From Candidatus Dormiibacterota bacterium (lineage in GTDB: Bacteria; Vulcanimicrobiota; Vulcanimicrobiia; Vulcanimicrobiales; Vulcanimicrobiaceae), in the NCBI GenBank assembly GCA_035532035.1, contig DATKRS010000011.1, forward strand, positions 62,001-126,000: 64,000 nt of DNA, given 5' to 3'. The stretch's first letter is position 1. Each line of letters begins with the position of its first letter. The notes beneath the pieces are model-generated. The model saw only the letters and a program-made list of their open reading frames with translations. It was not told where the DNA came from and ran no database searches. The position numbers were made by a program, and so were the translations under genes. Positions 3,158-19,470 of this stretch are shown piece by piece.

Positions 3158-3733
3158 ATGGCAGCGATGATGGACAAGCCGCACTGGCGCAGGGTCGCGT
3201 CGCGCTACGTCGTCGACTCGCGATTCCTTCGCATTCGGCAGGACACGATCGAGTTGCCGGACGGCACCCTCGTGCCGGAGTACTTCGTGCGCGAAGCGGC
3301 TGGGTTCGTGATGGTCTTCGCGCTCACGGTCGACGAGCGCGTCGTTCTCGTGCGCCAGTACCGCTACGGCACGGACAGCGTCGGTCTCGAGCTCCCAGCC
3401 GGCATGCTCGAGCCCGGGGAAGACCCCGAGGCATGCGCGCGGCGGGAGCTGCTCGAGGAGACCGGCTTCTCCGCGGAGTCGATCCAGCCGCTCGGCGAGT
3501 ATGCGGTCGAAGCCGTGCGCTCGACCGCGAAGGCCTACATCTTTACAGCCGCGGAAGCGCGTCGCACGAGCGAGCCGCATCTCGATCCCACCGAGCACAT
3601 CGAGGTCGAGCTCCCGTCTATCGCAGAGTTCGCCAGGATGCTCGAAGACGGCCGGATCGACAACCTCGCCTCGATTGCCGCTGGGTACCGGGCGCTCGCG
3701 GCGCGAACTCCTGTTCGATGCCCCAAGCCCTGA
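3158..3733 (+). CDS. NUDIX hydrolase, ADP-ribose pyrophosphatase type
   Basis: 191 residues. A complete Nudix box lies at residues 82-104 (Gly82, Glu88-region, Arg96-Glu97-Leu-Leu-Glu100-Glu101-Thr-Gly103), matching the consensus GX5EX7REUXEEXGU. The preceding segment LPAGMLEPGE and the pattern VRQYRYG are typical of ADP-ribose pyrophosphatases (NudF class), which hydrolyse ADP-ribose to AMP and ribose-5-phosphate. It may start at the ATG at 3158 or at the ATG at 3170. Its 3' end overlaps the start of the helicase gene by 16 bases, so translational coupling is likely. Confidence 0.9.
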   Translation: MAAMMDKPHWRRVASRYVVDSRFLRIRQDTIELPDGTLVPEYFVREAAGFVMVFALTVDERVVLVRQYRYGTDSVGLELPAGMLEPGEDPEACARRELLEETGFSAESIQPLGEYAVEAVRSTAKAYIFTAAEARRTSEPHLDPTEHIEVELPSIAEFARMLEDGRIDNLASIAAGYRALAARTPVRCPKP

Positions 3734-6700
3734 TCCCGGAGCTCCATCCCCTCGTCGGGGAGTGGTTCTCGCAGCGCTACGGCGCTCCGACCGATCCGCA
3801 ACGACTCGGCTGGCCGCTCGTACGCGCCGGCGAAGACGTGCTCGTCTGCGCGCCCACCGGCTCCGGAAAGACGTTGGCCGCGTTCACCGTCTGCCTCGAC
3901 GATCTCGTCCGGCGTGCGGAGCGCGGCGATCTGCCCGACGGGACGCTTGCGGTCTACGTCTCGCCGCTCAAGGCGCTGAGCAACGACGTTCGCAAGAACC
4001 TGGAGTTACCGCTGCGTGAGCTGACGGTGCGCGCCCTCGAGCGCGGCATCCGTCTCGAAACGATCCGCACGGCGGTGCGGACGGGAGACTCAACGCAAGC
4101 CGAACGCGCGCGGATGCTTCGCACGCCGCCGCACGTACTCGTCACGACGCCGGAATCGCTCTACATTCTCCTGACCGCGGAGAAGTCGCGGCGTCTCTTC
4201 GGCGGCGTCACGACGGTCATCGTCGATGAGATCCACGCGATAGCGGGCGACAAGCGCGGCGCGCACCTGGCGCTCACCCTCGCACGCCTCGACGCGCTCG
4301 TCGAGCGTGAGAGCGGCAAGAAGCCGCAGCGCATCGGTCTCTCGGCGACCGTTCGACCGATCGAGACGGTGGCACGCTTCCTCAGCCCGAAAACGCGCGT
4401 CGTGGACGTCGGCGCGCGCCGCGAGATGGACGTCCGCGTCGAGGTACCGCGCGACGAGCTCGGCGCGGTAGCGAGCACGGCCATGTGGGACGAGGTCTAC
4501 GATCGCATCGCGGAGCACATTCGCGCGCACCGCACGACGCTGGTCTTCGTCGGAACGCGGCGCATGAGCGAGCGCGTCGCGTTCGCGCTCACGCAGCGAC
4601 TGGGCGAAGGCGTGCTGCTGCCGCATCATGGCAGTCTCTCGCGCGACGCGCGCTTCGAAGCCGAACGGCGCTTGAAAGGCGGAGAGCTCCGAGCCGTCGT
4701 TGCGACGGCCTCGCTCGAGCTCGGCATCGACATCGGCACGATCGATCTCGTCGTCCAGCTCGGTACGCCGCGCGCCGTCGCCGTCGCCCTGCAACGCATC
4801 GGACGCTCCGGGCACTGGGTCGGCGCAAAGCCCAAGGGCATCATCTATGCGACGACGCGCGACGAGCTCGTGGAGTGCGCGGCGCTCGTGCACGCGCTAC
4901 GCGCCGGATCGATCGACGCGCTGACGATCCCTCGCTCGCCTCTCGACATCCTCGCGCAGCAGCTCGTCGCGGCGTGCTCCGCAGGCGAGTGGGAAGCCGA
5001 CGAACTCTACGCGCTCGTACGGGGCAGTTACTCGTACCGCGATCTCTCGCGCACCGATTTCGATGACGTGCTTGCGATGCTCGCCGACGGCGTCGCGACC
5101 TCACGAGGGCGCAGCGGCACGTTCTTGCACTACGATCGCGTCAACGGCCGCCTGCGCGCGAGGCGCGGCGCCCGCCTTGCGGCGATCACGTGTGGTGGCG
5201 CGATTCCTGACACCGCGAACTACAACGTGATCGTCGAGCCGGAAGGGCAGATCATCGGTACGCTCGACGAGGATTTCGCCATCGAATCCATGGCCGGCGA
5301 CATCTTTCTGCTTGGCACTAACTCGTGGCGCGTTCGGAAGATCGAGGCCGGGGCCGTGCGCGTCGAGGACGCGCGCGGCGCACCGCCCTCAATTCCGTTT
5401 TGGAACGGCGAGGGACTTGGCCGCACGATCGAGCTCTCGCGCGAAGTCTGCGCGGTGCGCGAGCGCATCGAGACGAGCGACGACGGTGCGGCCCGCGCGT
5501 TTCTCGCGGCCGAGTGCGGCCTCGACGATGCCGGCGCCGCCCAGGCCGTAGCGTACGTGCGCGCCGGACGTGCCGCGCTCGCCGCCCTCCCGACGCATCG
5601 CACCGTAGTCGCGGAGCGTTTCTTCGACGACGGGGGAGGCATGCAGCTCGTCTTGCACACGCCCTTTGGCGCACGCATCAACCGCGCGTGGGGGCTGGCG
5701 CTGCGCAAGCGATTCTGCCGTTCGTTCAATCTCGAGCTGCAAGCTGCGGCGACCGACAACGGCATCGTGCTCTCGCTCACCGACCAGCATGCCTTTCCAC
5801 TCGAAATCGTCTTCGAGTTCGTGAAGTCCGCCAGCGCAGAAGACGTCTTGACCCAGGCTCTGCTGCCGGCGCCGATGTTCGCCGCCCGCTGGCGATGGAA
5901 CGTCACGCGGTCGCTCGCTGTGCTGCGCCGCCGCGGCGGGAAAAAGGTTCCGCCGCAGATTCTGCGCATGCGCTCCGACGATCTGCTCGCGTCCGTCTTC
6001 CCGGATCAGGCCGCGTGCGCGGAAAACTTGACCGGGCCGATCCGCGTTCCCGATCACGTCCTCGTCCGCGAGACGATCGGCAACTGCCTCCACGAAGCGA
6101 TGGACGTCGACGGACTGCTCGACGTCTTGCGCGGCATCGAGCGAGGCGAGATCGCGACGCATGCGATCGACACGGCGGAGCCCTCGCCGTTCTCGCACGA
6201 GATTCTCAACGCCAATCCGTACGCGTTCCTCGACGACGCGCCGCTCGAGGAACGCCGGACGCGCGCGGTGCAGCTGCGGCGAACGCTCCGCGACGACGAC
6301 GCCGGCGCGGGGCTGCTCGATGCCGCCGCGATCGACGAGGTCGCGGGGCAGGTATGGCCGGTCGTGCGCGACGCCGACGAGCTGCACGACGCGCTGACGA
6401 CGCTCGTCGTCCTCCCGCCCGTCGACGCTTGGCAGCCGTGGTTCGAACGCCTCTGCGCAGATCGCCGGGCGCTCGTCCTCACGCATGGCGAGCGCCGGTT
6501 CTGGGTCTGCGCCGAGCGTGCCGAGCTCGCGCGGCGTGCGTACCCGCAACCGCCGGACGAGCGCGAGGGCGGAGCGGTGACCGAGGTTTTGCGCGGGTGG
6601 CTCGAGTGCAGCGGACCGGCGAGCATCGGCGATCTCTGCGAGCGCCTCGCCCTCGACGCGCAATCGGTCGAAAGCGCATTGCTGCGGCTGGAGACTGAAG

Positions 6701-17902: not shown

Positions 17903-17911
17903 TGCTATACT
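17903..17911 (+). promoter_or_regulatory. extended -10 promoter ahead of the predicted small RNA
   Basis: TGC followed by TATACT (17906-17911) is an extended -10 element. No recognisable -35 hexamer sits 16-18 bases upstream, which extended -10 promoters tolerate. A start site near 17918 would give a transcript ending at the terminator 17949-17976. Confidence 0.5.
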
Positions 17912-17917
17912 ATCCAT

Positions 17918-17976
17918 GCGTCTTGCGAAAACGTGACCGGTTGGACGAAGAGAGACCTCAGTAGGTCTCTCTTTTT
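17918..17976 (+). ncRNA. predicted ~59-nt small RNA with complementarity to the nearby tRNA anticodon arm
   Basis: The interval between an extended -10 promoter and a strong intrinsic terminator has no start codon with a usable frame. Its first bases (17919-17933) are the exact reverse complement of CGTTTTCGCAAGACG. The downstream tRNA-like gene contains CGTTTTTCGCAAGACG as its anticodon arm (18055-18070), so the two differ by a single T. The RNA could therefore pair with the tRNA anticodon arm with one bulge. This is a prediction from sequence only; it could also be a leader of the tRNA transcript. Confidence 0.45.
17949..17976 (+). terminator. strong intrinsic terminator upstream of the tRNA-like gene
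   Basis: AGAGAGACCT (17949-17958) pairs perfectly with AGGTCTCTCT (17963-17972) around the tetraloop CAGT and is followed by a T run (17972-17976). Confidence 0.9.
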
Positions 17977-18027
17977 GTCTCGTTAGGCCTTGCGGGCCGC
18001 CGCTTTCGAGTGAAGGTAGACTTGGGT

Positions 18028-18099
18028 GCCCCTGTAGTTCAACTGGATAGAACGCGTTTTTCGCAAGACGTGGATTCGGGTTCGAGCCCCGACAGGGGC
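18028..18099 (+). tRNA. tRNA-like gene with irregular anticodon arm, specificity unresolved
   Basis: The acceptor stem GCCCCTG/CAGGGGC (18028-18034/18093-18099), D-arm GTTC...GAAC with a GG-containing loop, and T-arm TCGGG-TTCGAGC-CCCGA are all perfect. The anticodon arm (18055-18070) is one base short: the simplest stem leaves a 6-base loop TTCGCA. If T57 is bulged, a normal loop TTCGCAA appears with anticodon CGC, which would be Ala, yet the acceptor lacks the G3:U70 pair required for Ala. CCA is not encoded. It may be a working tRNA with an unusual arm, or a decaying copy. Confidence 0.65.
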
Positions 18100-18192
18100 C
18101 CCCGGCGGCATGCCGCTGGATTCGCGCGGGAGCTTTCGGCCGGGGTTGCGACCGGGTCTAGACCGATAGCGCCCCGCGACAGCAACGCTCGT

Positions 18193-19470
18193 TCACGACG
18201 CAAGAGCCTCCTCGGCGGCCGCGAGCGTCTCGTCCACGTCTTGCGCCGTGTGCGCGGTCGAGAGGAACATCACTTCGTTCTGCGACGGCGGGAGCAGAAT
18301 GCCGCGCTCGAGCATAGCGCGGTAGTACGCCGCGTACCGTTGCCTGTCCGCGGCCCGCGCATCGTCGTAGTTGCGAGTCGGCGGGCCGGGGCGAAACGCG
18401 AAGTCAACGATGGATTCTTCTTGTACGACGGCATATGGTAAGCCGCGTTCGGCGAAGATCGAGCGAAGGCCATCAGCGAGCCGCCGCGCGAGCGCGTCCA
18501 TCTGCGCGTAGTACTCCGGATGCGCTTCGAGAAGATCGAGCACGCGGTGCGCCATTGCAACGCAGAACGGGTTCCCCGCGTGCGTCCCGCCCGTGAAAAC
18601 GGCGCCGTCCGGAGCGAGCACGTCCATCACGTCCGCGCGCCCACCGAAGGCTGCGATCGGTACGCCTCCGCCCATGATCTTTCCGAGTGTCGTGAGATCC
18701 GGCACGACGCCGTGTCGCCCTTGCGCTCCACCAAGACCGAGGCGCAGCCACGTAACGACCTCGTCGAAAAGGAGCAGCGCGCCGTACCGGTCGCAGCGCT
18801 CCCGCAATCCTTCGAGAAAGCCAACCGCCGGGGGGACCCATCCCATGTTGCCGCAGACCGGCTCGACGAGAACCGCGGCGAGCTCGCCTTCGCGCCCACG
18901 CAGCAGCGCATCCACCGAATCGAGATCGTTGTAGCGCGTGACCACTACGTCGCGCGTCACGCCTTGCGGAATCCCGCTCTGCCGCGCATCGCGCGTCTGC
19001 GCCGACGCCCCGGCATCGAGAAGCGCGAGGTCGAAATGCCCGTGGTAGTTGCCGGCAAACTTGAGCACGAGATCGCGTCCCGTGAACGCGCGAGCGACGC
19101 GCACCGCGCTCATCACGGCCTCGCTTCCGGTGGTTACGAATCGCATGCGCTGCATCGAGGGGAGATGGGTGCGAATGCGCTCGGCGAGGCGCACCTCGAG
19201 CGGATGCGTCGCTCCCCAGACGAACCCGGCGCTTGCGAGCTCGTCGAGGCGTTCGATCAAGGCGGGATGCGTGTGACCGAAGAGCAGAGGGCCGTACCCC
19301 ATGACGTAGTCGACGTAGCGCCGTCCGCGCTCGTCATATGCGTACGCGCCGCTCGCCGACGCCTGCACGAACATCGCCTCGCCGATCGACCAACCGGAGC
19401 GCACCGGAGAGTCGCAGCCGCCCGCGAGCACGTCGCGAGCGCGCTCGGAAAGATCGGCGAGGGCGCGCAT
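18193..19470 (-). CDS. hemL: glutamate-1-semialdehyde 2,1-aminomutase
   Basis: 425 residues, the normal HemL length. Features include GYGPLLFGHTHP near the N-terminus, the cofactor-binding TTGSEAVMSAVRVARAFTG, FAGNYHGHFD, the LLFDEVVTWLRLGLGGAQ strand with the PLP-contacting Asp, and the PLP lysine in LGKIMGGGVP. It converts glutamate-1-semialdehyde to 5-aminolevulinate in tetrapyrrole synthesis, using PLP/PMP. The ATG at 19470 starts the conserved region; open frame upstream of it is shadow. No other heme genes are adjacent. It is divergent from the Mrp gene. Confidence 0.93.
   Translation of the reverse strand: MRALADLSERARDVLAGGCDSPVRSGWSIGEAMFVQASASGAYAYDERGRRYVDYVMGYGPLLFGHTHPALIERLDELASAGFVWGATHPLEVRLAERIRTHLPSMQRMRFVTTGSEAVMSAVRVARAFTGRDLVLKFAGNYHGHFDLALLDAGASAQTRDARQSGIPQGVTRDVVVTRYNDLDSVDALLRGREGELAAVLVEPVCGNMGWVPPAVGFLEGLRERCDRYGALLLFDEVVTWLRLGLGGAQGRHGVVPDLTTLGKIMGGGVPIAAFGGRADVMDVLAPDGAVFTGGTHAGNPFCVAMAHRVLDLLEAHPEYYAQMDALARRLADGLRSIFAERGLPYAVVQEESIVDFAFRPGPPTRNYDDARAADRQRYAAYYRAMLERGILLPPSQNEVMFLSTAHTAQDVDETLAAAEEALAS

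What the first reader, a model, noticed from the sequence alone, without database searches (positions are those of the whole stretch)
17903..18099. Predicted small RNA whose 5' end is complementary to the anticodon arm of the adjacent tRNA
An extended -10 promoter (TGC-TATACT) and a strong terminator frame a ~59-nt transcript. Its first 15-16 bases (17919-17933) are the reverse complement of the tRNA anticodon arm at 18055-18070 apart from one extra T in the tRNA. The match continues weakly into the variable region (TGGAT). The RNA could be an anti-tRNA regulator, a decoy, or a leader that controls transcription of the tRNA; it might also be an inverted partial duplicate of the tRNA. I know of no described system with this layout.
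Basis: partly seen in the sequence, partly recalled or inferred. Interest (0 to 1): 0.7.

Follow-up and report, generated by a model that had tools for sequence, protein, structure and literature searches.

The report
Antisense RNA paired with odd tRNA
Next to an extra, odd tRNA gene this bacterium carries a tiny RNA gene that is complementary to that tRNA, and the same two-gene pair, with matching changes in both partners, recurs in distantly related bacteria, which suggests a previously undescribed RNA-only switch, possibly a toxin and antidote both made of RNA.

Summary
The window (an Eremiobacterota MAG) has an extra tRNA (18028-18100, tRNA-Arg-like body, 6-nt loop TTCGCA) and, upstream, a promoter-terminator gene for a ~60-nt RNA. 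Its 5' end is antisense to the anticodon arm, and a second block to the D-arm. The same pair lies at the orthologous locus of congener G004 with different but still complementary sequences; four other relatives with the same flanking genes have neither gene. I found about 20 such units: Eremiobacterota, Acidobacteriota, Electryoneota, Lysobacteraceae (including cultured Noviluteimonas/Lysobacter lactosilytica, divergent genes) and one IMG/VR contig. Three units were first located by the tRNA alone and then found to have the antisense partner. Cognate pairing beats swapped partners (0 of 200,000 permutations). The tRNAs keep A20, U33 and C36, carry Ala or Val anticodons on Arg-like bodies, and have weak promoters; the sRNA promoter is stronger in 16/16. 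One decayed unit lost its tRNA and kept the sRNA; the reverse was not seen. Best reading: an sRNA that sequesters its neighbouring tRNA, most likely an RNA-only toxin-antitoxin pair with a misdecoding tRNA as toxin. Pairing is well supported; toxicity and expression are untested.

The parts
17903..17911 (+). extended -10 promoter element TGC-TATACT of the sRNA gene
   Evidence: sequence; promoter scoring
17918..17978 (+). predicted antisense small RNA, about 55-60 nt, start inferred
   Evidence: sequence, fold, antisense scan, duplex
17918..17934 (+). antisense block 1, pairs with the anticodon arm of the tRNA at 18053-18071
   Evidence: covariation in relatives
17937..17946 (+). antisense block 2 (CCGGTTGGAC), pairs with the D-arm at 18037-18046
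17948..17976 (+). intrinsic terminator of the sRNA (hairpin 17948-17973 plus T run)
18017..18022 (+). weak candidate -10 box (TAGACT) of the tRNA gene
   Evidence: score 2.4 versus 6.5 for the sRNA promoter
18028..18100 (+). extra tRNA gene with an Arg-like body, 6-nt anticodon loop TTCGCA, anticodon read as CGC at 18062-18064

Best explanation
The unit is a two-gene, RNA-only module. One gene makes an unusual tRNA: Arg-like body with A20, and an Ala- or Val-type NNC anticodon. The other, with a stronger promoter, makes a short antisense RNA that starts pairing at the exposed anticodon loop, extends through the anticodon arm and often reaches the 5' D-stem, so the tRNA cannot be charged or used, or is degraded. 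Most likely the sRNA is an antitoxin. If the short-lived sRNA is lost (gene loss, transcription shut-off, phage infection), the stable tRNA is freed and misdecodes very common Ala or Val codons, arresting growth. Shown computationally: gene pair, complementarity, covariation, recurrence across phyla, joint presence and absence. Inferred: expression, duplex formation in the cell, misacylation, toxicity, and the trigger.
For: Antisense scan of 75 tRNAs puts the units on top. The orthologous locus in G004 has the same order with both partners changed; G003, G006, G007 and G008 have neither. All 14 matches of a tRNA-only pattern in 149 phylum genomes are units (13 intact, 1 with a truncated tRNA), including two blind predictions. 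Units occur in Acidobacteriota, Electryoneota, an IMG/VR contig and Lysobacteraceae, including one more blind hit. Swap tests: 0/200,000 for duplex energy, 0/5,000 for paired cells. sRNA promoter stronger in 16/16. U33, C36, G18G19A20 and T-loop conserved. GCG is the commonest codon in six window genes. G002a lost its tRNA and kept the sRNA. The window sRNA prefers its own tRNA (42 versus at most 27.5 for the host tRNAs held).
Against: No expression or toxicity data. The window and G018 tRNAs have 6-nt anticodon loops and C73, and G004 has an acceptor-stem defect, so these may not decode at all. The Arg anticodon determinant C35 is absent; Arg charging rests on A20 alone and is inferred. Flanking genes are ordinary chromosomal genes, not plasmids or defence islands. 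The search patterns were restricted to S-R-C anticodons, so the anticodon bias is partly built in.
Confidence: 0.55

Rival explanations
1. The sRNA is a physiological off-switch for a specialised, non-toxic tRNA, for example one released under stress to change decoding or bind another partner. Same pairing, no addiction.
For: All the pairing and covariation evidence; chromosomal, non-mobile context; odd loops suggest a non-decoding role in some units.
Against: Sporadic presence (10 of 149 phylum genomes) and joint absence in close relatives do not fit a needed regulator; normal Ala-CGC and Val-GAC tRNAs are present in the host.
Confidence: 0.27
2. The sRNA regulates mRNAs and the tRNA-like RNA is its sponge or decoy.
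For: The sRNA has promoter, 5' seed and terminator like ordinary trans-acting sRNAs.
Against: The seed differs in every genome and tracks only the neighbouring tRNA, so a conserved mRNA target is unlikely; the tRNA keeps U33, A20 and the T-loop.
Confidence: 0.08
3. Leader or attenuator that controls transcription of the tRNA in cis.
For: In the window, G004 and Ca. Hatepunaea the sRNA lies upstream on the same strand.
Against: In most units the sRNA is downstream of the tRNA; in Lysobacteraceae it is divergent.
Confidence: 0.02
4. Inert inverted partial duplication of a tRNA, or an integrase attachment-site remnant.
For: The sRNA resembles the reverse complement of the tRNA 5' half; viral contigs L107-L109 carry 5' tRNA halves.
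Against: Complementarity, promoter and terminator are kept while both partners diverge; units share architecture across phyla.
Confidence: 0.04

Closest known systems
Type VIII (RNA-RNA) toxin-antitoxin systems: creTA and SdsR/RyeA (PMC10767807, PMC12737573)
   Same: Two closely linked RNA genes, one proposed to harm translation and the other to silence it; creTA also centres on tRNA function.
   Different: CreT is an mRNA-like RNA that sequesters a rare tRNA and CreA is a crRNA-like repressor needing Cas proteins; SdsR/RyeA lie on opposite strands with overlap. Here the candidate toxin is itself a tRNA and the partner is a separately encoded antisense of its anticodon and D arms.
Type I antisense antitoxins (e.g. 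hok/Sok; own knowledge)
   Same: Short antisense RNA antitoxin from its own, stronger promoter; a stable target RNA.
   Different: The target is a tRNA, not an mRNA for a peptide, and the antisense gene does not overlap its target.
T-box riboswitches (own knowledge)
   Same: An RNA that pairs with a tRNA anticodon.
   Different: T-boxes are leaders of aaRS or amino-acid genes, pair three bases of the anticodon and sense charging; here a free RNA pairs ~15-20 nt of one dedicated tRNA.
tRNA family RF00005
   Same: Cloverleaf, T-loop, G18G19, U33.
   Different: Arg-like body with Ala or Val anticodon; some units have 6-nt loops or bulged stems.

Membership tests
Type VIII toxin-antitoxin system | both components are RNA, with no protein partner gene | tested here: met
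   tRNA gene plus a ~60-nt terminator-bounded gene; neighbours are unrelated ordinary genes that differ between most units
Type VIII toxin-antitoxin system | the two RNA genes lie close together (TADB 3.0 uses up to 200 bp for creTA, PMC10767807) | tested here: met
   start-to-start distance 110-189 nt
Type VIII toxin-antitoxin system | the antitoxin RNA acts specifically on the toxin RNA | tested here: inconclusive
   specific predicted pairing and covariation; action not measured
Type VIII toxin-antitoxin system | the toxin RNA stops growth when the antitoxin is absent | not testable with these tools
   needs expression in a laboratory strain; indirect sign only: G002a lost the tRNA and kept the sRNA
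creTA | toxin is an mRNA-like RNA with strong RBS and rare codons | tested here: not met
   the candidate toxin is a tRNA
creTA | linked CRISPR-Cas locus | not tested
   no systematic cas search was run
SdsR/RyeA-type pair | the two RNAs are encoded overlapping on opposite strands | tested here: not met
   separate, non-overlapping genes
T-box riboswitch | leader of an aaRS or amino-acid gene with a conserved T-box | tested here: not met
   no Rfam T-box match; own terminator, no downstream mRNA
tRNA (RF00005) | covariance-model score above gathering | tested here: met
   47.9 bits versus 29

The most novel reading that the evidence does not exclude
An addiction or abortive-infection module made only of RNA, in which the toxin is a chimeric tRNA that misdecodes abundant Ala or Val codons and the antitoxin is a dedicated antisense RNA to its anticodon and D arms, spread sporadically across at least four bacterial phyla.
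Probability: 0.42. Interest if true: 0.93.

Novelty: categorically new. Interest (0 to 1): 0.85.

Why it matters
I found no report of a bacterial RNA dedicated to silencing a particular tRNA by base pairing. If it works as proposed, it is a new kind of RNA-only conflict module that gene-based searches cannot see, it hides in genomes as an 'extra tRNA', and it makes a natural case of controlled mistranslation testable. A culturable host (Noviluteimonas/Lysobacter lactosilytica A6) carries two copies.

Tried and rejected
Consensus promoter and terminator scan found nothing at its thresholds. Homology search with the whole unit finds only the tRNA part. Pattern hits outside tRNAs (L057-L060, L062, L063, L066, L071, L111-L138, L160) are chance. 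L103/L155 (Alphaproteobacteria, tRNA-Val) and L102 (Gribaldobacteria, Val-CAC) have no convincing partner. Rfam holds no family for the sRNA. No plasmid match, and the phage matches listed are ordinary tRNA-Trp genes. Leader and att-site readings rejected on gene order and covariation. A ~13-nt match of the tRNA arm inside the aminotransferase gene (about 18233-18250) is taken as chance. The six-codon ORF ATGCGTCTTGCGAAAACGTGA (17916-17936) has no evident counterpart in other units. A search centred directly on L104 was not accepted and was done through its genome handle later.

Full report
What is there. The window belongs to a 2.25-Mb Eremiobacterota MAG (phylum named by congeners). Between an M28 peptidase gene and a class-III aminotransferase gene (hemL/GSAM-like) lie a terminator-bounded small RNA gene (about 17918-17978) and a tRNA gene (18028-18100), both on the + strand. 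The genome has 51 tRNAs above cut-off. This one scores lowest (47.9 bits) and is surplus: a normal Ala-CGC tRNA and Arg tRNAs are elsewhere. Its body is closest to host Arg-CCT (75% outside the anticodon arm), but its loop is TTCGCA (anticodon read as CGC, 6 nt).

Pairing. The sRNA 5' end pairs with the anticodon arm and a second block (CCGGTTGGAC) with the D-arm, -39.6 kcal/mol as a duplex. Among the host tRNAs held, the sRNA prefers its own (42 versus at most 27.5). Taken alone the window match has p about 0.003, so the case rests on relatives.

Orthologous locus. Using hemL as anchor, congener G004 has the same unit in the same place and order: arm GGGGTTTCGCAACCCC with sRNA GGGGTTGCGAAACC, against CGTTTTTCGCAAGACG with GCGTCTTGCGAAAACG in the window. 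At least four pairs around the anticodon differ on both sides and remain paired. G003 (89% identical flanks), G006, G007 and G008 keep the flanking genes and have neither RNA gene.

A family. A tRNA-only pattern over 149 genomes of the phylum gave 14 hits in 10 genomes; all are units, two of them new and with an antisense partner found only afterwards. One, G002a, has a truncated tRNA with the sRNA retained. A scan of GTDB contigs and viral contigs gave units in Ca. Sulfotelmatobacter (L104), Ca. Hatepunaea (Electryoneota; L100) and IMG/VR contig L110; L110 also carries an IS1595-type transposase, so its viral nature is uncertain. Lysobacter (Noviluteimonas) lactosilytica A6 has two units 2.6 kb apart with the sRNA on the opposite strand, and another genome of its family has one. 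In the class of L104, the only other hit among 299 genomes was chance.

Architecture. The sRNA often reads: guide of about 16-20 nt, a small hairpin, GAGCTAC complementary to tRNA positions 8-13, terminator. Most Val-type units lack or shorten the D-arm block. Start-to-start distance is 110-139 nt in most same-strand units and 184-189 in G029 and G045. In several Eremiobacterota units the sRNA promoter carries a shared spacer motif (CTNGYCACC); scanning for it returned only units, six of six.

Statistics. In a 16 x 16 matrix the cognate duplex averages -40.8 kcal/mol against -26.1 for swapped partners; no permutation of 200,000 matched it; the cognate tRNA ranks first for 13 of 16 sRNAs and second for three. 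Anchored on the anticodon in 19 units, 269 of 323 cells pair against 183 with swapped partners (0 of 5,000), with up to four Watson-Crick pair types in a column. Caveats: the units share ancestry and loop sequence, sRNA offsets were chosen for best pairing before the swaps, and duplex energies ignore internal structure.

How it may work. The tRNAs keep U33, C36, G18G19A20 and the T-loop, so most look translation-competent. A20 is the classic bacterial Arg determinant (own knowledge); the Arg anticodon base C35 is missing. In ten of the 19 units the anticodon is CGC, in one GGC, in eight GAC; GCG, GCC and GTC are among the six commonest codons in six window genes. The sRNA promoter is stronger than the tRNA promoter in 16 of 16 units by a simple score. 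Excess antisense RNA over a stable target, loss of the tRNA before the sRNA, and sporadic all-or-nothing presence fit an RNA-only toxin-antitoxin pair. They also fit, less well, a regulated special tRNA. The odd loops in the window and G018, and C73 there, warn that some copies may not decode.

Known systems. Type VIII toxin-antitoxin systems are RNA-RNA (PMC10767807, PMC12737573), with creTA and SdsR/RyeA as validated cases; neither has a tRNA as toxin or an anti-tRNA RNA. Six literature searches gave nothing like this; subscription papers and preprints are mostly not held, so absence is not proof.

Noticed in passing
L107 4289 (same sequence in L108 8439); L109 4552: Viral contigs carry the 5' half of a similar tRNA ending at a TTCGCAC loop, with short or weak antisense stretches downstream; decayed units or integrase att sites.
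   Followed up: partly
L086 (G002:C77) 3634-3960: Two tandem units; in the first the tRNA is truncated into the sRNA promoter while the sRNA is kept.
   Followed up: partly
L139 and L148, between tRNA and sRNA: A long inverted repeat (CCGTTTCGGCC...GGGCCGAAACGG and similar) sits between tRNA and sRNA promoter in G029 and G045.
   Followed up: no
L089 1290-1410: G003 has two tandem copies of a repeat (GGCGATGGCATTGCCTGTGTCATCCTGAGCG...) where the unit lies in the window.
   Followed up: no
window 17916-17936: Six-codon ORF ATGCGTCTTGCGAAAACGTGA overlaps the sRNA start.
   Followed up: partly
window 18233-18250: About 13-nt match of the tRNA anticodon arm within the 3' end of the aminotransferase gene, probably chance.
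   Followed up: no
L155 (Alphaproteobacteria), tRNA 1460-1538: tRNA-Val (gac) with Arg-like D-arm but no convincing antisense partner within 600 nt.
   Followed up: partly
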